64,000 nt of DNA. Source: Methylobacterium oryzae. Lineage in GTDB: Bacteria > Pseudomonadota > Alphaproteobacteria > Rhizobiales > Beijerinckiaceae. The stretch covers positions 626,501 through 690,500 of the forward strand of contig NZ_CP090349.1 of NCBI RefSeq assembly GCF_021398735.1, given 5' to 3'. The notes beneath the pieces are model-generated. The model saw only the letters and a list, made by a program, of their open reading frames with translations, did not search any database and was not told the DNA's origin. Shown here piece after piece: positions 14,851 to 25,907 of the stretch. Position 1 is the first letter of the stretch. Every line of letters begins with the position of its first letter. A program made the position numbers and the translations under genes.

Positions 14851-15294
14851 TTATGGGTTGGCTGTCTGAGCGGAGGAGACGCGGCAGCCGCTCTCATCTA
14901 CGACGCGTTCGCCGTCTTCTTTGGTGAACGCTCCGCGCTGCCTAGGAAGAAGGTCCAGCGCAGCTTCAGAGGGTCGGCAGAGACGCACGCCTAGCGGGGT
15001 GACGACAAGCGGGCGGTTTATCAGGATCGGGTGCGCCTCGATCGCATCGAGCAGTTGCTCGTCCGTCAGCTTCGGATCGGAAAGACCCAGCTCCGCGTAT
15101 GGCGTGCCTTTCTCGCGCAGGACCCCGCGCACCGACAGGCCTGCGCGTTCCAGGAGCTGCACAAGCAGCGCTCTCGCCGGAGGCGTTTTCAAGTACTCAA
15201 TCACATGCGGCTCGATCCCGGCATTGCGGATCATCGCCAGCGTGTTGCGGGACGTGCCGCAGTCCGGATTATGGTAGATAATAACGTCCATCAT
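14851..15294 (-). CDS. arsC: Glutaredoxin-dependent arsenate reductase
   Basis: 147 residues of the ArsC/Spx fold. The catalytic Cys lies in HNPDCGTSRNTL (residue about 12), and the conserved Arg-bearing ILINRPLVVTPLGVRLCRP is present. It reduces As(V) to As(III) with glutathione and glutaredoxin for export by ArsB. The start at 15294 follows GGAGG and overlaps the previous stop by four bases (ATGA). It coexists with a phosphatase-fold arsenate reductase in the same operon. Confidence 0.94.
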   Translation of the reverse strand: MMDVIIYHNPDCGTSRNTLAMIRNAGIEPHVIEYLKTPPARALLVQLLERAGLSVRGVLREKGTPYAELGLSDPKLTDEQLLDAIEAHPILINRPLVVTPLGVRLCRPSEAALDLLPRQRGAFTKEDGERVVDESGCRVSSAQTANP

Positions 15295-15818
15295 GCGACC
15301 TCCGGACGGGGCGACGTTGCGCCTTCCAGCTGGCCGATCTCGCGGACCTTGGCCGATAGCGCCACCTGGTCGAGGCTCGCGACCGGCAACGCAACGAAGG
15401 CGGCAATCCGGTTCTTGAGGAAGCGCTGCGCAGTGATGAAGGCCGCCTTGCGCTGCATTTCGCTGCCCTCGGCGGCGGCGGGGTCTTCGATGCCCCAATG
15501 CGCCGTAACAGGCTGGCCCGGCCAGAAGGGGCAGGTCTCTCCGGCTGCGTTGTCACAGACGGTGAAAACGAAATTCATCACCGGAGCACCCGGCACGGCG
15601 AACTCGTCCCACGATTTCGAGCGCAGCCCGTCCGTTGGGTAATCAGTTTCGGCAAGCGTCTGCAGCGCGAGCGGATGCGGCTCGCCCTTGGGCTGGCTGC
15701 CTGCTGAAAACGCCCGGAAGCGACCCTGCCCATCCTTGTTGAGCATGGCTTCGGCAAGAATCGATCGGGCCGAATTGCCGGTGCATAGGAACAGGACGTT
15801 GTAGACGCGATCAGGCAT
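15291..15818 (-). CDS. arsC: Low-MW phosphatase-fold arsenate reductase (ArsC type 2)
   Basis: 175 residues with the P-loop FLCTGNSARSI (CX5R-like) near the N-terminus and TVCDNAAGETCPFWPG downstream, matching LMW protein-tyrosine-phosphatase-like arsenate reductases that use thioredoxin or glutathione relays. The start at 15818 overlaps the arsR stop by eight bases; an alternative ATG at 15833 would add five residues. Two mechanistically distinct reductases in one operon are common in alphaproteobacteria. Confidence 0.92.
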   Translation of the reverse strand: MPDRVYNVLFLCTGNSARSILAEAMLNKDGQGRFRAFSAGSQPKGEPHPLALQTLAETDYPTDGLRSKSWDEFAVPGAPVMNFVFTVCDNAAGETCPFWPGQPVTAHWGIEDPAAAEGSEMQRKAAFITAQRFLKNRIAAFVALPVASLDQVALSAKVREIGQLEGATSPRPEVA

Positions 15819-16176
15819 GGGCTGTGTCTCCATCTGGAATGCAAAGGCAGGCGGCAAGGGCTTCGACAGCCGGAGCGCAGACTTCCGGGCGTCCTTGGCA
15901 GCAATCGCGCATCAGGAATTGGATAAGGCTGGACAGCGGATCGTAGGCGGCGCTGTAGATGATCGAGCGGCCTTCCCGGCGAGACTGGATCAGTCCGGCG
16001 TGGCTCAATTCCTTGACATGGAACGACAGGTTGGTGCCGGACACGCCGACCTCGTTCGCGAGCGCACCGGCTGACAAGCCGTCCGGCCCAGCGGTTACGA
16101 GCGCCCGCACGATGCGCAGACGGTGTTCCTGGCCGAGCGCCGCGAAGGCGGAGACCGCTTGCCGTTCGTCCATCAT
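15811..16176 (-). CDS. arsR: ArsR-family arsenite-responsive repressor
   Basis: 121 residues. The winged helix includes LSAGALANEVGVSGTNLSFHVKELSHAGLI. Instead of the E. coli type ELCVCDLC metal site in the DNA-binding helix, cysteines cluster near the C-terminus (RDCCQG...VCAP...AACLC), as in other ArsR subclasses with C-terminal As(III) sites. It starts at 16176 (or 16173). It represses its own operon and probably divergent arsH through the operator between them. Confidence 0.93.
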   Translation of the reverse strand: MMDERQAVSAFAALGQEHRLRIVRALVTAGPDGLSAGALANEVGVSGTNLSFHVKELSHAGLIQSRREGRSIIYSAAYDPLSSLIQFLMRDCCQGRPEVCAPAVEALAACLCIPDGDTAHA

Positions 16177-16183
16177 TGGTGCA

Positions 16184-16208
16184 ATATCTCAATCATTGTT
16201 GAAATGTA
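16184..16208. promoter_or_regulatory. Probable ArsR operator
   Basis: TCAA-N6-TTGA at 16189-16202 with partly symmetric AT-rich flanks, lying between the divergent arsR and arsH start codons. It fits the ATCAA-N6-TTGAT style of ArsR sites. Pattern match only. Confidence 0.55.
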
Positions 16209-16223
16209 GATGAAAGAGACGCC

Positions 16224-16970
16224 TTGGACAAGCCCGATCAATCCTTCGCAGATGGAACGCCGAACCTTTCAGAGGCGCACTTCGAGACCCCGACAAGCGA
16301 GCGCCTTGGCGCAATGAAGCCGTTCGAGCACGCGCCCCGCTTCTTGATTTTGTATGGCTCCCTGCGCGAGCGGTCTTTCAGCCGCTTCCTCGCATACGAG
16401 GCCGCCCGTCTGCTCGAAGCCATGGGCGGTAAGGTGCGGATTTACGATGCGCACGGCCTTCCATTGCCCGATGACACGACCGCCGATCACCCGAAGGTGC
16501 AGGAACTTCGCAATCTTTCAATCTGGTCCGAGGGTCAGGTGTGGGTGAGCCCCGAGCGGCATGGCAATCTGACAGGCGTCATGAAAAGCCAGATCGATTG
16601 GCTCCCGCTTTCCGAGGGCAGCGTGCGACCGACACAGGGCCGGACCCTTGCCGTCATGCAGGTGTCTGGCGGTTCGCAGAGTTTCAACGCCGTGAACGCG
16701 CTACGCGTGCTCGGGCGGTGGATGCGGATGATCACGATCCCGAACCAATCTTCGGTGCCAATGGCCTACAAGGAGTTCGATGATGCAGGCCGTATGAAGC
16801 CGGGGCCGCTATACGATCGCGTTGTGGACGTGTGTGAGGAGCTGATGAAATTTACGCTGCTTACCCGCGAGCGGGCAGATTACCTTGTGGATCGCTATAG
16901 CGAGCGAAAAGAGCGGGAGCCCAATCGTTTAAAGGCCGTGGCAGCCGATATCGGCTTCGTCAAACGCTAG
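16224..16970 (+). CDS. arsH: ArsH organoarsenical oxidase (flavoprotein)
   Basis: 248 residues, NADPH:FMN oxidoreductase fold. The FMN-phosphate motif [10 protein letters not shown] and the conserved [20 protein letters not shown] and [21 protein letters not shown] are diagnostic of ArsH. It oxidises trivalent methylated or aromatic arsenicals to less toxic pentavalent forms. The apparent start is TTG at 16224 preceded by a weak GA-rich site. An ATG at 16314 would remove 30 residues but keep the flavodoxin core. It is divergent from arsR and likely shares its operator. Confidence 0.93.
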
Positions 16971-16971
16971 C

Positions 16972-17268
16972 TCAGATATGGCTGTCCGTATCCATCCGCT
17001 GATGCAGGACGCGGATCACGTCGATCCCGGCATCCGTCCGCCGGTAAAATATGAAATGCGATCCAACGCGATATTTTAGATATCCGGCTCGAACCTCGAC
17101 AGCACGGCCGATCTTTGCGCCGTTGGCCAGTTCCGTCGCAGCGTTGACGATGTCCTGATGATAGCGGTCTGCCTGATCCGCCGACCATTGCCCAACCGTG
17201 TACCGCCAGATTTCTTCCAGGTCCGAACGGGCGAGGGGTGTGAACCTGGCGCGGGCGCTATTGCCCAT
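16972..17268 (-). CDS. parE: ParE-family toxin
   Basis: 98 residues of the RelE/ParE fold with the typical FTPLARSDLEEIWRYT start and KYRVGSHFIFYRR core. ParE toxins poison DNA gyrase. It overlaps the upstream antitoxin gene by 11 bp, the usual parDE layout. It probably stabilises the integrated element. It abuts the 3' end of arsH tail to tail. Confidence 0.9.
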   Translation of the reverse strand: MGNSARARFTPLARSDLEEIWRYTVGQWSADQADRYHQDIVNAATELANGAKIGRAVEVRAGYLKYRVGSHFIFYRRTDAGIDVIRVLHQRMDTDSHI

Positions 17269-17503
17269 GCTTCGCCCGCATCTCCGTTAGAAATGCGGGA
17301 CTGTCGAGTTCTTCCGCAGGGCCGGACTCTTCGCCAGCAATGAGGGCGGCTTGAAGCGCGGCGACCTTGGCTTCCCGCTCTTCCAACAAGCGAAGGCCTG
17401 CGCGCACCACGTCACTGGCGGAACCGTAGCGGCCGCCTTCAACCTGCCGGTCGATGAACTGGGCGAAATGGTCTCCAAGCGAGATCGATGTGTTCCGTGC
17501 CAT
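17258..17503 (-). CDS. parD: ParD-family antitoxin
   Basis: 81 residues. The N-terminal ribbon-helix-helix (NTSISLGDHFAQFIDRQVEGGRYGSASDVVRAGLRLLEERE) binds DNA and the acidic C-terminus neutralises ParE. First gene of the parDE pair. A perfect TACCAA-TTT-TTGGTA palindrome lies 25 bp upstream and is the likely autorepression site. Confidence 0.91.
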   Translation of the reverse strand: MARNTSISLGDHFAQFIDRQVEGGRYGSASDVVRAGLRLLEEREAKVAALQAALIAGEESGPAEELDSPAFLTEMRAKHGQ

Positions 17504-18454: not shown

Positions 18455-21037
18455 TTAAGCGCGGATAGCACCAGCTCGAACCTGTGGAGTAATGCGAGTG
18501 CGGACTTCATTGTAGACGTCGATTCCAGCTCCAACCCCGACCTCAAAACTTACTACGAGCGCGTAAGGGACTGATTCCGTAAGATCTCCGGCCGACGACC
18601 TACAGGAAACTCTCAGTAATAGATCTCCGTCATCAATATAGATGGCCGCCTTGTCACCCGTTCTGCGCTCATGAAAAACACTTCCCCGGACGATAGTTTT
18701 GTCCGTCGGCTGGCAGGCATCACGATCCGAAACTATCCAATATTTTTCTTCACTCCCCGAGCTGATGTCTAAAGAGGCCTGTCGATAGCCTTGATGACGG
18801 GAGTTGATAGGCGAAAACCATGCTAGTGTTGTTGTAAGTGCTCGGAACTCGGGAGCACCGTTAAGTTGAGCCGGTAACGGAACGCGATAGAGAAGAGCTC
18901 CGTTCGCATCAATAGACCCGGTCCCAAGCAGCGTAGCTCTGTTCTCTGCGCAATCGATGACACGCATTACATCTGGAAAACCGTAGCCAAATAGTCGTGC
19001 AATATCGTCACGTCGGCTTATATGCTGTCCTGTACCACGAGGGCCGAAAAAATTTTCAAGCATCTCTCCCTTTGGACCCCAGGACGAGCCATGCACTAAT
19101 AAGGCTTTAAGAGCGAGCGCCTGATAATCTGGCGATAAGTCGTTGTGATTTGAGGCTTCTCCGAGCCCCAACAAGCTATCGTAAATCTGGTGGCCAGCTC
19201 TTGTTGCTAATGCGGTCGCTACGCTCGTGCCCCATGCGAAATCCTCATGTCGCGTTCCGCCTGCAGCATTCGGGGACGCGACTTTCAGCCCAAAAAGTCG
19301 CGCAGGTGAGCGCACAGGCTGGATTGTAACGCCTCCACCAGAAGCAACAATTCTGACTGGGGTTCGACCGCCTTCAAACAATAAATCAGGCTTAATCGCC
19401 TTGCGGAAACCTAATCCGTTCGCGGAGGCGATATTGGGAAGTTGGTTGCTTGTAAAGGGATCGATTAGATTTGCAGGCAAGTTCCCGCCGTACGAATGAC
19501 TCGAGTGCGATGCGCCTATCGTCAGCGAATTAATTGACTCCGCTGGCGAAAATAAAGTCCTCTGGCTTTTAAGGCGGTTAAGGGCGGATAGAACTGCCTT
19601 CTCTCGGTCCTCAGGATCCGCCTGCTCGAAATCGCTAGCAGTCTGAAACTCTGGTACATCTATGCGATCAAGGATATTGCCGGCGCTTATCAGAAACAGC
19701 ACACGATAGCGAAAGGATAAAAAATCGATAAGCCTCCCCAAAGGACTCATGACACGCGCGAAGGGTCGCCAGGGGTCCCCTAGTGAGAGGTTGATTAGTA
19801 CCACCGCGGGTGCGGTAGGTGCTTCATCGCCATCACCAATCTTCATTCGCCTAACAGCTCGATGAATTACGTCTACTAGCAGGCGGTCGGCTGGCGTTCG
19901 TTCCGAGTCCCAGGCATCGGGCCGCATAACGGGATGCACGAACAGAAGCCTTTGTAACGGTTCTTCGTCCCGGGCGAGATCGCCGTGGACTATCAGGGAT
20001 GCCATCTCAGTACCATGAGCGCGGCGGCTTACAGGATAAACGTCGTCTAAGTCTTCTGGATCATCAACTGTGATGCGCCCTCGCAGCCTCGTGTGATTTT
20101 GTATCGGCAACCCATCTAGCAGCGCAGCTATCGGCTGCGCCAAGGGCGGAGTTTCCACAATACCAACGTCAGGCGCATCCTCGCCTGCCGGTTCTTCTTT
20201 CCGAGATTTGGCTGCGGATTGTGGGCGGAGAAACATGACTTCGTCGTTGCGAGCAAGCGTGACCGCAGGATTATTGATAAGGTCTTCGGCTCGGGCAGCT
20301 GGAATGTCGACCAAGAGTGCATCATAACGAATTTCTGACACCGTAGCGTTGTGTACAATCGTCCCACCGATAGCCGCGAGTTCAGCCTCAAGCTTTGTCC
20401 TGGCTGCATCGCGCTTGTTGCGGTCCTCATGATACCAAAGCTCAATTTCAAATCGCACAGGTTGATTGGGATTGTCGCGAAGAGTTTCACGCCAATACTC
20501 GATAGTTTCAGGCGGAACACGGTCTTGCGGGCCCCAGGGGCGAACATCAATCAACAGCGAGAATAGCTCTCTCCACTCAGATCGGCCATCGGGCATCCGT
20601 TGGCCTGAGCGAAAGCGATTCCAGAGCCCTAGAAGTTCTCGTAACGATCGAGCGTCGGGCATTGCCAAATAAATTCGGCCCGCTAGCACCTTTTCAGGGC
20701 GGTCACGATCATGGAAATCGTCAGAAGGGTCGATTTCCTCTTCGTAATCGCCTAGATACTCCAAACCCAATGCCTGAGCTTGAGTGTAGAAATCCGATAG
20801 CTGTCCAGCTACTTCAAATACAATTGCCCGCTCTGGAGCGATAACTGTCGGATCGTTCCTCAGCGCCAAAAGCTGCTGCGGACTATCCGCGACCTCTAGC
20901 AGTCGTTGAAATCTCGGTGCTAGACGATTGCCTTGTTGTTGACGGGAGGGTTTGGCTAAATTTCCACCGCCTCGTGGACCAGGCCTTGGAACAAATTGGA
21001 CAGGATCTGGTAGCTTAAGTAGAGGACGTTCCGGCAT
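18455..21037 (-). CDS. ietS: Subtilisin-like serine protease, IetS type
   Basis: 860 residues. A roughly 280-residue N-terminal region precedes an S8 peptidase domain with Asp in ALLDGLPI (near 307), His in RRAHGTEMASL (near 339), oxyanion Asn in LISAGN (near 451) and nucleophile Ser in WGTSVATALA (near 603). All key residues are present, so it should be an active protease. There is no signal peptide, so it is cytoplasmic. It overlaps the upstream AAA ATPase gene by 23 bp. This AAA-plus-subtilase pair matches IetAS, first described as a plasmid stability/incompatibility module in Agrobacterium and later scored as an anti-phage system. Substrate unknown. GC is clearly below the neighbouring chromosome. 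Confidence 0.85.
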   Translation of the reverse strand: MPERPLLKLPDPVQFVPRPGPRGGGNLAKPSRQQQGNRLAPRFQRLLEVADSPQQLLALRNDPTVIAPERAIVFEVAGQLSDFYTQAQALGLEYLGDYEEEIDPSDDFHDRDRPEKVLAGRIYLAMPDARSLRELLGLWNRFRSGQRMPDGRSEWRELFSLLIDVRPWGPQDRVPPETIEYWRETLRDNPNQPVRFEIELWYHEDRNKRDAARTKLEAELAAIGGTIVHNATVSEIRYDALLVDIPAARAEDLINNPAVTLARNDEVMFLRPQSAAKSRKEEPAGEDAPDVGIVETPPLAQPIAALLDGLPIQNHTRLRGRITVDDPEDLDDVYPVSRRAHGTEMASLIVHGDLARDEEPLQRLLFVHPVMRPDAWDSERTPADRLLVDVIHRAVRRMKIGDGDEAPTAPAVVLINLSLGDPWRPFARVMSPLGRLIDFLSFRYRVLFLISAGNILDRIDVPEFQTASDFEQADPEDREKAVLSALNRLKSQRTLFSPAESINSLTIGASHSSHSYGGNLPANLIDPFTSNQLPNIASANGLGFRKAIKPDLLFEGGRTPVRIVASGGGVTIQPVRSPARLFGLKVASPNAAGGTRHEDFAWGTSVATALATRAGHQIYDSLLGLGEASNHNDLSPDYQALALKALLVHGSSWGPKGEMLENFFGPRGTGQHISRRDDIARLFGYGFPDVMRVIDCAENRATLLGTGSIDANGALLYRVPLPAQLNGAPEFRALTTTLAWFSPINSRHQGYRQASLDISSGSEEKYWIVSDRDACQPTDKTIVRGSVFHERRTGDKAAIYIDDGDLLLRVSCRSSAGDLTESVPYALVVSFEVGVGAGIDVYNEVRTRITPQVRAGAIRA

Positions 21038-22046
21038 CTTCTTCCCATTTATCTATCTCGGGTGCACGTACCCGCTGTGTCCATATCTTCAGTTGTTTCT
21101 TCGCAATCGCACTCGTCGAGAATTTGCCATCCGACAAAACTTGTCTGCGGGCAACATCTAGAAAGAACTGCTCAGCTTCACTGAAACTTATCCGGCCTAG
21201 AGCCCTCGAGATTTGATCTGAGCTAATACCAAGGTGAATGTTGGATTGATAGCTTAAGTGTGTGAGATAGGATGCTACTTGTTTTTGTGTCGGCTGTGGC
21301 AAGGGTATTCTAACCTGAAACCGCCGCCACACCGCTCTATCCAACAACTCCGAGTGATTGGTTGCCGCGATTACAACAACATAGCTGGGCAAATCGTCCA
21401 TCTGCATAAGTAGCGATGTGACGACGCGTTTGATTTCGCCAGTTTCATGAATGTCGCCACGTTCCTTGCCAACTGCATCGAACTCATCAAAAAAGAGCAC
21501 GCATGGTGTCGTTTTGGCATAATCGAAGACGCGCCGCATCCTGCTAGCTGTCTCTCCAAGAAAGCTACCAATAATGGCTTCATAACGAACAACGAAAAAT
21601 GGTACTGCAAGACTCTCCGCGACGGCTTCGGCGAGCGACGTTTTACCGTTGCCGGGAGGTCCAACGAAAAGCGCGCTATGACGCGGCTCAAGCGAATGGG
21701 AGCGGAGAATGCTCGCTCTTTGCTGCTCTTCGATAAGCTGTCTGATGGCCTCAGCAGAAGTGTCAGGAATTATCAAGTCGTCAAGCCTACGACGGGGGAC
21801 AATTTCCGTTATAAAGTCACGAGCGCGTCCCACCTGTTCGCTAGGTGCATGCGATATTTTTGAGGCATGCTGTGGGGAATTAGAGCCGTACACTGAGCGA
21901 TATGCCTTCTCGATACGGTCTGCTACTACGTTATGTTGCTTGGCTCGTTCTTCAGCAACTATAGCCTCGACGGTCTTTTTGAGAGTATTTACGTCTCCGC
22001 TGGCGCCAGACCTAACGAGATTTATCAGCAAGTCACTGCGCGCCAT
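21015..22046 (-). CDS. ietA: AAA+ ATPase, IetA type
   Basis: 343 residues with a single AAA module: Walker A GPPGNGKTS (near 128), Walker B VLFFDEFDAVG (near 182), sensor-1 IAATNHSELLD and arginine residues in RAVWRRF, most like the FtsH/katanin-type AAA clade. The start at 22046 is chosen because GGAGG lies five bases upstream; an ATG at 22100 has no ribosome site. The gene overlaps the preceding RHH gene by 14 bp and the following subtilase by 23 bp, so the three are coupled. Expected role: ATP-dependent partner or unfoldase/sensor for IetS in plasmid stability or phage defence. Confidence 0.85.
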   Translation of the reverse strand: MARSDLLINLVRSGASGDVNTLKKTVEAIVAEERAKQHNVVADRIEKAYRSVYGSNSPQHASKISHAPSEQVGRARDFITEIVPRRRLDDLIIPDTSAEAIRQLIEEQQRASILRSHSLEPRHSALFVGPPGNGKTSLAEAVAESLAVPFFVVRYEAIIGSFLGETASRMRRVFDYAKTTPCVLFFDEFDAVGKERGDIHETGEIKRVVTSLLMQMDDLPSYVVVIAATNHSELLDRAVWRRFQVRIPLPQPTQKQVASYLTHLSYQSNIHLGISSDQISRALGRISFSEAEQFFLDVARRQVLSDGKFSTSAIAKKQLKIWTQRVRAPEIDKWEEDAGTSST

Positions 22047-22302
22047 GATTTCCTCCGCCACCTCGGCGGCGACCTCTGCGATCTGCAAGCTCCGACTCAT
22101 CTACTTCGACGCCAATTGCTTGCAGGCCGCGAAGCACCATGCTTCGAATGCTCTCTCCTCGATCGATGCTCATGTGAGCAACTTGTCTACGCACCGCTTC
22201 CGGCACCATCACCTGGATCGGGACTTCTTTATTGTGTAACGCTGCCGCACTCTTCGTAAGCCTATTGGGGCTTGCTGGCCCGGATGCCAATTTGTTTTGC
22301 AT
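22033..22302 (-). CDS. Ribbon-helix-helix protein heading the ietAS operon
   Basis: 89 residues with a central RHH segment (VPIQVMVPEAVRRQVAHMSIDRGESIRSMVLRGLQAIGV in two pieces of strand and helix) and a basic, Gly/Arg-rich tail RRGRRRGGGG. Similar in plan to small DNA-binding proteins of plasmid partition or antitoxin systems. It overlaps ietA by 14 bp. Inference: autorepressor or DNA-recognition component of the module. The start at 22302 has only a weak ribosome site. Confidence 0.7.
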   Translation of the reverse strand: MQNKLASGPASPNRLTKSAAALHNKEVPIQVMVPEAVRRQVAHMSIDRGESIRSMVLRGLQAIGVEVDESELADRRGRRRGGGGNHGAQ

Positions 22303-22322
22303 TCTACCGATTCCAAAGCAAC

Positions 22323-22346
22323 ATCATGTGTTCCTGTTTTCATGAT
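22323..22346. promoter_or_regulatory. Candidate operator of the RHH-ietAS operon
   Basis: ATCATG (22323-22328) and CATGAT (22341-22346) form an inverted pair 18 bp apart, just upstream of the RHH start codon in an AT-rich stretch. Plausible autoregulatory site; weak on its own. Confidence 0.35.
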
Positions 22347-22414
22347 TTTAGCCTATGGCGCCTTGAGGTGCAAGCCGTTGGCTCAGGCTCTGCGGGTGAT
22401 TGGATATCTTCTAG

Positions 22415-23815
22415 TTATGTAGGAAAGTCTTGGCCGATTCGATCGGACGAGTATTTGCCGGATTGGCGGATGTCGCGAAGATGTCCATCGAGTTCTCTTC
22501 GCATCCAAAACGGCGGAGTAATTACAATAAAAAACCCGTGATCTCTGGCGTCTAGCAAGGATGTTTCGTCGTTGGTAGCTCGTCTTACATCTTCGACTTG
22601 AAGCAGGGGGCGCGCCTGTTCCACGAGGTTGTCGCCAGAGCCGTTAACCTGGTTCGAATTCACGTTGAAGCCGCGCACCATCACCGATGTTTTGCCGGAG
22701 CGATGCTCTATTTCCTTCAGCGTGTCGCTGTCCGGTAGGCCGCGATAAAGCGTATGGGCGACAGCTTTCTTCCAGATGCGCGCGGTCTCGCGTCCATAGC
22801 GGGTCGCGATCTGCGCTGCTGCATTCTGAAACACGCCGAGGAAGTTGATGCCACCCTGGCGATAGAGGGTCAGGATCTCATAGAAGTTCGAGACGTATAG
22901 CTGCCCCCATTCCTCGCCGACGACGAGCGCCCGCAAGGGGCCTTGCGCATCGGCGAAGCGCTCGATCACGGCGGCCGTCATAGCGCCGACGAAGTTGCGG
23001 CTGGTCTCGGATCGGGCCGAGCCGATGATGAAGAGAGCGGTTCTCTCCCGCTTCATATTGGCGGGATCGAACGTGTTCCGGCTCGTAAGGATGCGGGCCG
23101 CCATTCCTGGCTGGAAGCCTTGCAACCGCTCGATGATGAGCGAGGCGTAGGCATTCCATTGGTCGGGCGAGGACGTCAGTCCGGCTACCAAGCGGCACAT
23201 ACCGGCTTCGTCCTGCATCCGCCGGTCTGACGCCCAGAGCAGCAGGTCGTCGGCGATCTCGTCGCGCGGCCGTCCCCAAAAATCCCACAGGCCGCCGGGC
23301 GAGCATGACCAGCGCTCGGACGGGTAGAGGGCTGTGATCTTGTTGTAGAGCGTGAAGAAGCTGCGGACGCCCTGGCTCACCCAGCGGTTCTTCGAGTCCG
23401 GGTCCTGCGGCACGAGAAAGCTCGCAGCGTCGTAAGCCGCTTCGCCGACTATGCCGCGAAGGGCAGGGTTGGCCGCTGTCCTCAGGAGACGCGTGTTGAT
23501 GTTGTAGCTTTCCGATGGGTAGCCGTGGTGATTGCCCGCGTTGATGAACAAGACGCGGTAGCCCTGGCGCTTGAGCGTCACCCACGACACCCAGGCCAGT
23601 TCGCCATCCTTCGTGTCGGTGATGATTTTGGTGAGATGGTCGGTTCTGGGTGAGACAAGGTTTACGCCCAGAAAGCGGGTGAGCTTGCCTTTTCCGGCTT
23701 GGGCATCAATCGCGACCGGCTCGGTGCCATCATAGACGAGTGGATATCCGTCGATGAATCCAAGTTCGATGCCTCGGCGGATATTCCGGTAGGTGCGAAG
23801 GGCCGGGACGGTCAT
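22415..23815 (-). CDS. TraG/VirD4-like coupling ATPase, short form
   Basis: 466 residues. A P-loop-like AQAGKGKLTRFLGVNLV (near 45) is followed by DTKDGELAW, comparable to the DPKGE motif of VirD4/TraG, and a degenerate Walker B LRALVVGEEWGQL. The usual N-terminal membrane helices are absent. The start at 23815 overlaps the preceding small gene by four bases (ATGA). Role: couples the relaxosome to a type IV secretion channel supplied in trans, as in integrative mobilizable elements. The P-loop and Walker B deviate from consensus, so activity is uncertain. Confidence 0.75.
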   Translation of the reverse strand: MTVPALRTYRNIRRGIELGFIDGYPLVYDGTEPVAIDAQAGKGKLTRFLGVNLVSPRTDHLTKIITDTKDGELAWVSWVTLKRQGYRVLFINAGNHHGYPSESYNINTRLLRTAANPALRGIVGEAAYDAASFLVPQDPDSKNRWVSQGVRSFFTLYNKITALYPSERWSCSPGGLWDFWGRPRDEIADDLLLWASDRRMQDEAGMCRLVAGLTSSPDQWNAYASLIIERLQGFQPGMAARILTSRNTFDPANMKRERTALFIIGSARSETSRNFVGAMTAAVIERFADAQGPLRALVVGEEWGQLYVSNFYEILTLYRQGGINFLGVFQNAAAQIATRYGRETARIWKKAVAHTLYRGLPDSDTLKEIEHRSGKTSVMVRGFNVNSNQVNGSGDNLVEQARPLLQVEDVRRATNDETSLLDARDHGFFIVITPPFWMRRELDGHLRDIRQSGKYSSDRIGQDFPT

Positions 23816-24042
23816 AGCAACCCTGACCGCCTGAGCGCTTCCATGTCGTTCAGCTTCCCATTTCCAAGTTGCCCACTCGGGTTTGCATCCAGCATCTGGC
23901 GAAAGCGAGCGGCCGCAGCGGCTTCCGCCCGTGCTCTCGCGATGCGCGCTTCGGCGGCATCTTCCCAGGCAAGTCGCTGGGCTGCCTGGGATTCGAGGCT
24001 GAAAAGAAATTGATGGATGGCGATGAGTTGCTGGAAGCTCAT
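23812..24042 (-). CDS. Small Ala-rich hypothetical protein in the mobilization operon
   Basis: 76 residues, almost wholly helical and Ala/Arg-rich with likely coiled-coil character. It overlaps its neighbours on both sides by four bases (ATGA), so it is clearly part of the operon. No recognised family. It may bridge the membrane protein and the coupling ATPase. Confidence 0.65.
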   Translation of the reverse strand: MSFQQLIAIHQFLFSLESQAAQRLAWEDAAEARIARARAEAAAAARFRQMLDANPSGQLGNGKLNDMEALRRSGLL

Positions 24043-24554
24043 TTGCGCAGCTCCTCCTCATCGTCCCAGGTGGCGAAGCGGAACGGAGGAGCGGCAGGCT
24101 TCACCGGAGCAATTTGGTATTCGGTATCTGCCGCAGCCTGCGCAGAGGTGATGTCTGATCCCTTGAGGAGCTGCAGCTGGGATGTGTCGTCGTTATCGTC
24201 TCTCTCATCAAAAGCCAGGCTAAGTGAGCCCACCGTGTAGCTTCCGAAAATCAGGAAAGGCCACACATCATCACTGATCGGGATTCGAAGGATGATAGTG
24301 GCAAAAAGAATAAATGAAGGGATGAGGACCATACCAAGAATGCCGCGCCCTACAAATTCGCGCGCCTCTTCAGGCGTCAGAATATGGCCGAACAATCTGA
24401 GCGGTTTGTTCCAGGCGAAAAGACAAAGAACTGTAAGACAGAGCGATGCAAATAGAGCAAATGTAAGAATAAAAGCTGCGATGACATAGATGGCTGCTCC
24501 AATAAGTGCCAGGGTGAAAGCGAACTCATTGCTTTTGCCGTTTTGCATGGACAC
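24039..24554 (-). CDS. Membrane protein of the mobilization operon
   Basis: 171 residues with about four hydrophobic segments in the first 110 (FALIGAAIYVIAAFILTFAL, SLCLTVLCLFAW, GMVLIPSFILFATIIL, WPFLIFGSYTVGSLSLAF) and an acidic cytoplasmic tail. It overlaps the next gene by four bases. Inference: supplies the membrane anchor missing from the TraG-like ATPase. No named family recognised. Confidence 0.7.
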   Translation of the reverse strand: MSMQNGKSNEFAFTLALIGAAIYVIAAFILTFALFASLCLTVLCLFAWNKPLRLFGHILTPEEAREFVGRGILGMVLIPSFILFATIILRIPISDDVWPFLIFGSYTVGSLSLAFDERDDNDDTSQLQLLKGSDITSAQAAADTEYQIAPVKPAAPPFRFATWDDEEELRK

Positions 24555-24567
24555 TCTCCATTAGCCT

Positions 24568-25470
24568 CTAGCACCCCAGGGCCAGCCCGATAGACATCTC
24601 GCGCTTGCGGGCTGGTCCAGGATCAAGACCGCGCGAGAATTTAAAGAAGCGCCCAAGCTCACGCCGCAATTCCAGCAGCTCTTCGGCTTGGCGCTTGCGC
24701 AGGGATTTGAATTCGACCTGAAGGCGGGCCCGCTCTTCGCGCTGCCGGTCGATAAGTTGCTGGCGCTCTTGCGCCTGCCGCTCCAGGCTTGCTTTCGCTT
24801 CCGCTTCGTTCTGCGAACGGACTTTCTGATATTGGCCGGTGATCCGGTGCCATAGGCCGCGCAGGCCTTTGGGCAGTCGCGCCGCTCTCGCCTTCGTTTC
24901 GGCGTCCCAGGTGCGCGTCTGATCCTGGTCGAGCCTGGCGCGCCCATCGCGGTGGCGGTGGGTCATTTCCATCTTGGCGTGGGCAAGCGTAGCAGCAGAT
25001 TTCTGGAACTTGGTTCGCGACTCCGCGACGTGTCGCTTGATCGCCGGTGTCATGCGCTCGGCCAGCGCCTTGCGGGTGGCCTCGACGGAGGGCAGAGCAT
25101 CGCCATCACCAAGGCGCGCTTTTACATCCTTGGTTTTGAGGCCGAGGACGCGCGGGAGCGAATGCACTTCGCCGTCATGGTCGATGATGACATGGCCGCG
25201 CCGGTCGCCGCGCGCGATGAAGCAGCCATGCTCTTCGAGCGCACGGGAAAAGGCAGGACCGCTATCGGACGCCAGCCAGCAGGACTGCACGACAGCCTTG
25301 AGCCAGCGTGGGTCTTGCCCCTGGCGCTTGGCCTGTTGCCATTCGGCCAGGGTGAAGTTGCGCGGATCGCGCATGCCTTCGCGCGCGATACCGCGCGGCA
25401 TGTCGTCCATCCTCATGAGGTGGGCGGCAAGGTCCTGGCCGCCGCCACGCTGCGAGCCTTTCAAGATCAT
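24568..25470 (-). CDS. Relaxase remnant lacking the catalytic core
   Basis: 300 residues. It opens with MILKGSQRGGGQDLAAHLMR, the conserved first 20 residues of a MobA/VirD2-like relaxase family, and then jumps directly to the region that normally follows the nickase domain (GMRDPRNFTLAEWQQAKR, then CFIARGDRRGHVIIDHDGEVHSLPRVLGLKTKDVKARLG), ending in a long coiled coil. The intervening catalytic Tyr/His region is missing without a frameshift, so the gene has an in-frame internal deletion near 25410. It overlaps mobC by four bases. It may still bind partner proteins but should not nick DNA. Confidence 0.75.
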   Translation of the reverse strand: MILKGSQRGGGQDLAAHLMRMDDMPRGIAREGMRDPRNFTLAEWQQAKRQGQDPRWLKAVVQSCWLASDSGPAFSRALEEHGCFIARGDRRGHVIIDHDGEVHSLPRVLGLKTKDVKARLGDGDALPSVEATRKALAERMTPAIKRHVAESRTKFQKSAATLAHAKMEMTHRHRDGRARLDQDQTRTWDAETKARAARLPKGLRGLWHRITGQYQKVRSQNEAEAKASLERQAQERQQLIDRQREERARLQVEFKSLRKRQAEELLELRRELGRFFKFSRGLDPGPARKREMSIGLALGC

Positions 25471-25907
25471 GGCTGCGCCTCCGGCTTCAGGCCGAGCGCA
25501 ACCAGCAGCAGGCGGCGAATCTCGTGGAGATCGGCAAGCGCTTGGACGAGGGCGGCTTCAGTTTCTTCCGTCGCGGGAAGCGAGCCGGTGTTTGCCGCAT
25601 GGGCAAGCTGGTTGAGGTTGCTGAAAACCCGCGAGCGGCCGAGCAGGGCGATGAGCTGGGCCAGCACCTTCCGGTCGGCAATCGAGATGCCGCTCTTGCG
25701 GATTCTGGCCGGGACCGGCTCGCTCAGAACTTTCGCGCGGATGTAGGTGCCGAGCGGAGCGCCCGCGGCCTCACAAGCCAGGCGGGCGCGCTCGGCCCCC
25801 GAAAGTCGGAAGCTGAAGGGTGCCGGTGCCTTGGCCTTTCTGATTCGGCGGGTTTTAGCGGGAGGCGGGGTTGCCGCTTCGGCTTCGAAGGTGCTGCCTA
25901 GGGACAT
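25467..25907 (-). CDS. mobC: Mobilization relaxosome accessory protein (MobC-like)
   Basis: 146 residues. Basic N-terminus (KTRRIRKAKAPAPFSFRLSGAERARLACEAAG) with an RHH-like DNA-binding segment, followed by the MobC hallmark LLGRSRVFSNLNQLAHAANTGSL and a helical tail. MobC proteins bind oriT and help the relaxase open the strands. First gene of the mobilization operon, with oriT expected just upstream. Overlaps the relaxase gene by four bases. Confidence 0.85.
   Translation of the reverse strand: MSLGSTFEAEAATPPPAKTRRIRKAKAPAPFSFRLSGAERARLACEAAGAPLGTYIRAKVLSEPVPARIRKSGISIADRKVLAQLIALLGRSRVFSNLNQLAHAANTGSLPATEETEAALVQALADLHEIRRLLLVALGLKPEAQP

What the first reader, a model, noticed from the sequence alone, without database searches (positions are those of the whole stretch)
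18455..22302. RHH-IetA-IetS: a three-gene stability/defence module
The AAA ATPase and subtilase match the IetAS pair, with all catalytic residues present. All three genes overlap (14 and 23 bp), and an RHH DNA-binding gene leads the operon behind a palindrome. The RHH gene is not part of the standard description of IetAS and could be its regulator or the recognition subunit. The block is AT-richer than its neighbours, suggesting separate acquisition. Proteolytic abortive defence is the obvious model.
Basis: partly seen in the sequence, partly recalled or inferred. Interest (0 to 1): 0.7.

Follow-up and report, generated by a model that had tools for sequence, protein, structure and literature searches.

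The report
IetAS operon led by RHH gene
A known bacterial gene pair, a protein-unfolding motor and a protein-cutting enzyme, is led here by a small gene that probably makes a DNA-binding switch for the operon itself, because repeated DNA boxes of the kind such switches bind lie just before it and before some other defence-like operons led by its relatives.

Summary
The three minus-strand genes, both overlaps, the palindrome and the catalytic residues are as described. The AAA/subtilase pair is IetAS (PADLOC IetS 5.7e-300, IetA 1.1e-144), but far below NCBIfam's equivalog cut-offs. The leading 89-aa gene is under purifying selection and probably ribbon-helix-helix (RHH). It is not an obligate part of IetAS: an RHH gene precedes ietA in 26 of 75 usable loci of one genome scan, and in 2 of 5, 0 of 14, 1 of 21 and 4 of 17 loci of four other samples. 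All 29 RHH rows of an 80-row IetA tree fall in one weakly supported 44-row group. Two RHH types share the slot, with the same 14-bp overlap in 17 of 25 loci. Upstream of type A (the window's) lie TCATGA boxes best spaced at 8/16 bp; upstream of type B, TGAYRTCA boxes at 11/22 bp, also in four held-out loci; 52 RHH-less loci show neither. Type-A-like RHHs also lead methylase and ATPase operons, with TCATGA upstream in 3 of 4. This favours a portable autorepressor, as omega is for epsilon-zeta, over a recognition subunit. Substrates and trigger stay unknown. New variant of a known kind.

The parts
22324..22345 (-). Putative operator: TCATGA-AA-ACAGGA-AC-ACATGA, boxes at 8-bp period, 21 bp before the RHH start codon
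   Evidence: 3-box score reached by 0.04% of 2627 background segments; TCATGA-N10-WCATGA, a pattern taken from this site, occurs once in the 6.65-Mb genome, here; palindrome arms 22320-22349; similar arrays at the other 5 type-A loci
22033..22302 (-). Type-A RHH gene, 89 aa, putative autorepressor
   Evidence: 167 homologues; AF2 model pLDDT 67; PDB fold matches weak, but 35 of 50 listed rows are proteins I know as RHH; no Pfam, NCBIfam or PADLOC hit
22033..22046 (-). 14-bp overlap of RHH stop and ietA start, GGAGGA just upstream: likely translational coupling
   Evidence: sequence; the same 14 bp in 17 of 25 RHH loci recounted, 3 of 5 type A and 14 of 20 type B
21015..22046 (-). ietA, AAA+ ATPase, 343 aa
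   Evidence: PADLOC PDLC04232 1.1e-144; Pfam AAA 1.1e-32; below NCBIfam cut-off, 227.5 of 510 bits; these scans used the longer ORF from 22100
18455..21037 (-). ietS, subtilisin-like S8 protease, 860 aa
   Evidence: PADLOC PDLC04233 5.7e-300; Pfam Peptidase_S8 2.1e-10; D308/H341/S605 invariant in 33
22415..25907 (-). Neighbours, context only: VirD4/TraG-like (22415-24061), a gene without family hit at the place of a relaxase (24568-25470), MobC/NikA-like below Pfam cut-off (25467-25907)

Best explanation
This is a three-gene form of the IetAS toxin-antitoxin/defence pair: an RHH autorepressor, an AAA+ partner (antitoxin/unfoldase) and a subtilisin-like protease (toxin/effector) in one operon, probably translationally coupled, beside mobilisation genes. 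RHH dimers are inferred to bind side by side on the tandem 8-bp boxes just upstream and hold transcription low; the 14-bp and 23-bp overlaps would couple translation. IetA would normally restrain or feed IetS; loss of the element, or an unidentified sign of invasion, would free proteolysis and stop the cell. Shown: genes, overlaps, catalytic residues, purifying selection, clade distribution, boxes and their spacing. Inferred: RHH fold, DNA binding, repression, coupling. From literature on relatives: the pair acting as toxin and antitoxin. Unknown: trigger and substrates.
For: IetA/IetS profiles and triad. TCATGA 10 times in 1140 nt upstream of six type-A genes against 30 in 140,859 nt of the same loci; pair score z 7.7 at 8 bp and 9.3 at 16 bp. 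TGAYRTCA in 13 of 17 type-B loci, 16 in 3146 nt against 11 in 242,615; z 21.6 at 11 bp and 16.9 at 22 bp in 16 loci; four held-out viral loci z 10.3 at 11 bp. 52 RHH-less loci: z -0.4 to 0.9. Type-A-like RHHs stand before a type IIG RM enzyme (L132), an M.Eco57I-like methylase (L133), a C5 methylase (L143) and a protein with HATPase domains (L169); TCATGA is upstream in L132, L133 and L169, not in L143. PMC3874152 (passages): RHH regulators omega and PaaR precede antitoxin and toxin genes; omega binds cooperatively to repeats in its own promoter. PMC5006074 (passages): a related subtilase/AAA pair tested as toxin and antitoxin in E. coli.
Against: Both motifs were first noticed by eye on most of the loci later scored; held out were only four viral type-B loci (two close to loci already used) and four non-IetAS type-A-like loci. 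Other spacings also score above the shuffles (type A up to z 5.0 at 13 bp; type B 3.1 to 12.4 apart from 11 and 22 bp; held-out up to 6.3), and each motif scores on the other type's loci (z up to 5.9), so the spacing and type specificity are relative. Four of 17 type-B loci and one of four held-out ones lack an exact TGAYRTCA. L143 lacks TCATGA. No sigma-70-like promoter passes the scan at 22280-22450. The RHH fold rests on a modest model without a fold match at E <= 0.001; the type-B model matched no RHH structure.
Confidence: 0.7

Rival explanations
1. The RHH protein is a recognition or adaptor subunit: it senses DNA (or an invader's protein) and delivers substrates to the IetA motor and IetS protease. 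In other lineages different DNA-recognising proteins take the same slot.
For: In some RHH-less loci the nearest upstream gene encodes a DNA-recognising protein: HsdS (L037, with a 14-bp overlap; L056, 223 bp away), PglXI methylase (L084), XRE HTH (L066), weakly HTH_8-like (L080).
Against: Many IetAS loci show no such neighbour; type-A-like RHHs lead operons that were not IetAS; conserved operator-like boxes are what a regulator predicts.
Confidence: 0.15
2. The RHH gene is a partition or mobilisation protein of the host island that merely lies next to ietA.
For: Type-B-like RHHs follow ParA-like genes (by eye) in L144, L145, L147 and L146, and a type-A-like one is beside the ParA-like gene of L146; mobilisation genes flank the window operon.
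Against: Same place before ietA in 26 of 75 loci from many lineages, overlapping it by 14 bp in 17 of 25 recounted RHH loci; 13 of 27 contigs above 5 kb bearing a listed type-A RHH share their length with one of 119 listed IetS contigs. ParA was not searched for beside ietA.
Confidence: 0.08
3. The RHH protein is itself the labile antitoxin (as some RHH proteins are), with IetA a co-factor.
For: Gene order and small size; several weak fold matches are TA antitoxins such as TacA, AtaR and KacA.
Against: Pairs without RHH are common, and in SGI1 the AAA protein was reported as the antitoxin (PMC5006074, passages).
Confidence: 0.07

Closest known systems
IetAS (pTiC58 toxin-antitoxin pair; defence system in PADLOC)
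   Same: Adjacent, overlapping AAA+ ATPase and S8 subtilase genes with catalytic residues kept; PADLOC IetA/IetS models match
   Different: Extra RHH gene with its own boxes; below the NCBIfam equivalog cut-offs
SGI1 S026-S025 (AAA antitoxin / subtilisin toxin)
   Same: Same kind of pair on a mobilisable island; maintenance role (PMC5006074, title and passages)
   Different: The passages I saw describe two genes; its upstream region was not examined here
omega-epsilon-zeta and PaaR-PaaA-ParE three-component TA systems
   Same: RHH regulator gene first, then antitoxin, then toxin; for omega, repeats in its own promoter (PMC3874152 passages)
   Different: Other toxin and antitoxin families; 8-bp (type A) or 11-bp (type B) spacing rather than omega's heptads
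RM operons with their own controller (C) genes
   Same: A small DNA-binding gene leads methylase operons at L132, L133, L143
   Different: C proteins are HTH (recalled); here RHH

Membership tests
IetAS | AAA+ ATPase next to S8 subtilase, same strand | tested here: met
IetAS | Walker motifs and Asp-His-Ser triad intact | tested here: met
IetAS | PADLOC IetA and IetS profile match | tested here: met
   1.1e-144 and 5.7e-300
IetAS | NCBIfam IteA/IteS equivalog cut-off (the narrow anti-phage family) | tested here: not met
   227.5 of 510 and 55.3 of 900 bits
   26 of 75, 2 of 5, 0 of 14, 1 of 21, 4 of 17
IetAS | Toxin/antitoxin or anti-phage activity | not testable with these tools
   -
Three-component TA of the omega-epsilon-zeta kind | Regulator gene precedes antitoxin and toxin | tested here: met
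   gene order only
Three-component TA of the omega-epsilon-zeta kind | Regulator has the RHH fold | tested here: inconclusive
   supportive fold matches, none at E <= 0.001
Three-component TA of the omega-epsilon-zeta kind | Tandem repeats in the regulator's upstream region | tested here: met
Three-component TA of the omega-epsilon-zeta kind | Repression by the regulator | not testable with these tools

The most novel reading that the evidence does not exclude
Two RHH repressor families, each with its own operator code (TCATGA every 8 bp; TGAYRTCA every 11 bp), are portable control cassettes placed in front of unrelated defence operons (IetAS, methylase/RM, HATPase-type). Their operators could then be used to find undescribed defence operons, and a cell could sense an invader through displacement or titration of the repressor.
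Probability: 0.28. Interest if true: 0.7.

Novelty: new variant of a known kind. Interest (0 to 1): 0.5.

Why it matters
IetAS is treated as a defence system of unknown mechanism in the passages I read (PMC11878078, PMC9958689). A clade-specific third gene with a predicted operator gives a direct handle on when the protease is made, and the same regulator-operator unit may mark other defence operons. In the PLSDB gene table of Paracoccus albus plasmid p2 the RHH gene is not listed although the DNA encodes it; that table is known to be incomplete, but small leading genes like this may be missed by annotation-based surveys.

Tried and rejected
Homology of type-A and type-B RHH: hhalign probability 9%, E 0.0037, over 22 columns: not claimed. 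AF2 of type B: the fold search found no RHH; its RHH nature rests on weak Pfam RHH_1 (best 0.0017) and CopG_antitoxin (best 0.057) matches in 6 of 18 members each, weak MetJ matches (E 0.36, 0.43) and the alignment. PDB sequence search with type A: nothing relevant. Viral contigs with the type-A profile: none of 92 pattern matches encodes a relative. tblastn of the RHH on plasmids: 4 of 72,556 records, P. albus and three B. glumae. Sigma-70 scan: none. A literature search about MADS listed nothing relevant among its first 10. In the listings and the passages I opened I saw no RHH gene with ietAS; the 2009 pTiC58 paper is not held, so this is no proof of absence.

Counting notes. Genome scan: of 80 loci kept (308 matched) five (L011, L013, L016, L022, L054) were dropped because ietA's start was missing; 75 remain. 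Broken, partial or weak RHH copies count as present: L010 (split between two frames), L038 and L041 (split), L095 (cut short), L030 (5.9e-6); L025 (0.0035) counts as absent. Class sample: 5 loci with ietA at 49% identity or more; the window itself, L099 (no ietA in the stretch) and the distant L100-L121 are left out. Phylum sample: L218-L231; the distant or ietA-less L232-L246 and further matches are left out; two of the 14 had under 200 nt upstream. Plasmids: P. albus plus 20 picks of the 59 other listed hits (621 records matched). Viral: 17 of 23 loci, leaving out L184 and L185 (no ietA) and the distant L189-L192; L181 and L187 are near-duplicates. Motif counts used 17 of 23 type-B rows (L030, L038, L041, L053, L094, L095 left out), the spacing test 16 (L035 left out as well; 60 shuffles of two-base blocks), the cross-type control 15. 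The 52 RHH-less loci were read over 200 nt before ietA, the RHH loci over 130 nt before the RHH core. Type-A-like RHHs outside ietAS: a fifth hit, L134 (1.0e-5), lay in no clear gene and is left out of '3 of 4'; in L146 TCATGA overlaps the gene's own start codon and is not counted. The 22 viral type-B-like RHHs without ietA (L195, L196, L198-L217) were not examined further. The 35 RHH rows of 50 are by recalled protein names; 52 rows matched. ParA-like names are by eye.
Full report
What is there. The window holds, on the minus strand, an 89-aa gene (22302-22033), an AAA+ ATPase and an 860-aa subtilisin-like protease (21037-18455). IetA's listed start at 22100 is probably not the real one: 66 of 81 homologues begin MAR[S/A/G]DLL and the other 15 a close variant at the same place, which puts the start at 22046 and the protein at 343 aa. 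PADLOC names the pair IetA and IetS. NCBIfam's narrower equivalog cut-offs are missed by far, so this belongs to another branch of the family. The triad D308/H341/S605 and N454 are invariant in an alignment of 33. The block has GC 0.523 against 0.61-0.64 around it.

The leading gene. It matches no Pfam, NCBIfam or PADLOC model, but has 167 homologues and evolves as a protein: in the core, synonymous differences 0.69-0.95 against non-synonymous 0.04-0.25 (15 pairs). The predicted model is modest (pLDDT 67); its weak PDB matches are mostly RHH proteins such as AmrZ, Arc, CopG, ParG, AtaR and TacA (35 of 50 listed rows by recalled names, none at E <= 0.001). RHH is therefore likely, not proven.

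How often it goes with ietAS. A scan of GTDB genomes with an IetS alignment kept 80 loci, 75 with ietA's start. Window-type RHH (type A) stands before ietA in 5 (L009, L010 broken, L012, L014, L017), and a different RHH-like gene (type B) in 21. The class sample gave 2 of 5, the phylum sample 0 of 14, sampled plasmids 1 of 21, and viral contigs 4 of 17. In a midpoint-rooted IetA tree of 80 rows all 29 RHH rows (6 A with the window, 23 B) lie in a group of 44 rows with 61/93 support; 15 rows of that group lack RHH, and the other 36 rows have none. Of 27 listed type-A RHH homologues on contigs above 5 kb (the window's own entry left out), 13 share the contig length with one of 119 listed IetS relatives. 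So the RHH gene is a recurring part of certain IetAS lineages, not of IetAS in general.

Two types, one slot. Types A and B are not demonstrably homologous (hhalign probability 9%, E 0.0037, 22 columns). They occupy the same place before ietA, with a 14-bp overlap in 3 of 5 type-A and 14 of 20 type-B loci recounted, an 11-bp overlap in two and a gap of 2 to 35 bp in six. The AGTGAY of IetA's Ser-Asp codons can supply the RHH stop. In RHH-less loci the nearest gene before ietA can be HsdS (L037, L056), a PglXI methylase (L084), HmaC/DUF499 (L061) or an HTH protein (L066; weakly L080), or nothing clear.

Operator-like boxes. Reading the upstream DNA showed TCATGA words before type-A genes and TGAYRTCA words before type-B genes. 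Counted: TCATGA 10 in 1140 nt against 30 in 140,859 nt; TGAYRTCA 16 in 3146 nt (13 of 17 loci) against 11 in 242,615 nt. All six type-A loci reach a 3-box score that at most 0.054% of 1843 to 2627 background segments reach. The best spacings are 8 and 16 bp for A (z 7.7 and 9.3) and 11 and 22 bp for B (z 21.6 and 16.9); four viral type-B loci not used for the motif peak at 11 bp (z 10.3). Fifty-two RHH-less loci give z -0.4 to 0.9. In the host genome TCATGA-N10-WCATGA occurs once, at this site. The limits: the words were chosen after looking at most of these loci; the set is small; two of the held-out loci are close to used ones; other spacings also score (A up to 5.0, B up to 12.4, held-out up to 6.3); the motifs score partly on each other's loci (z up to 5.9); no sigma-70 promoter was found by the scan.

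The RHH outside ietAS. Type-A-like RHHs lie directly before a type IIG RM enzyme (L132), an M.Eco57I-like methylase (L133), a C5 methylase (L143) and, on a plasmid, a 722-aa protein with HATPase domains (L169). TCATGA stands upstream in three of these four, doubled at 8-bp spacing in L169; L143 has only ACATGA. These loci were found by the protein, not by the motif. In the class and phylum samples the type-A profile matched 4 of 385 and 2 of 398 genomes, the window's own among both. The type-B profile matched 6 of 385: two with IetAS, four where the RHH follows a ParA-like gene (L144, L145, L146, L147), as partition RHHs do (recalled).

Reading. A regulator explains the boxes, their link to RHH type, and the RHH's presence before other operons. 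A recognition subunit of IetAS does not predict these, though it is not excluded. The arrangement is that of omega-epsilon-zeta and PaaR-PaaA-ParE, where an RHH regulator gene precedes antitoxin and toxin and, for omega, binds repeats in its own promoter (PMC3874152, passages). A related AAA/subtilase pair was tested as antitoxin and toxin from SGI1 (PMC5006074, passages), and IetAS's defence mechanism is called unknown in PMC11878078 and PMC9958689 (passages). A recent predictor lists RHH among the three commonest domain families of its uncharacterised predicted defence proteins (PMC13092281, passages). I therefore file this as a new variant of IetAS with its own putative autorepressor.

Noticed in passing
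window 16972-17503 (-): ParD/ParE toxin-antitoxin pair near the operon (Pfam ParD 9.3e-32, ParE 8.1e-21).
   Followed up: partly
window 14851-16970: Likely arsenic-resistance cluster (ArsR-like, arsenate-reductase-like and ArsH-like by eye; only 16224-16970 was tested, Pfam FMN_red).
   Followed up: partly
window 22415-25907 (-): VirD4/TraG-like and MobC/NikA-like genes beside the operon; in Paracoccus albus plasmid p2 (L135) the operon also sits between MobC/relaxase and a T4SS coupling gene.
   Followed up: partly
L169 3001-5414: Plasmid operon of a type-A-like RHH and a 722-aa protein with HATPase domains, with TCATGAAGTCATGA upstream; possibly an undescribed defence operon.
   Followed up: partly
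L058, L063, L064, L071, L081, L084: ietAS directly behind a large methylase-like ORF; only L084's was tested and is PglXI-like (BREX). IetAS may be an add-on of BREX there.
   Followed up: partly
L061, L055, L060, L067: ietAS behind DUF499/HmaC-like ATPases; only L061 was tested, the others by eye.
   Followed up: partly
L124 71-337 (+): An 88-aa ORF that looks RHH-like by eye precedes a distant IetAS pair; no Pfam or PADLOC hit.
   Followed up: no
L146 6127-7582 (-): A ParA-like gene followed by a type-A-like and then a type-B-like small gene, a possible common source of both RHH types.
   Followed up: no
L170, L171, L172, L182: RHH-IetA-IetS operons lie on contigs classed as viral in IMG/VR, so possibly carried by prophages.
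   Followed up: no
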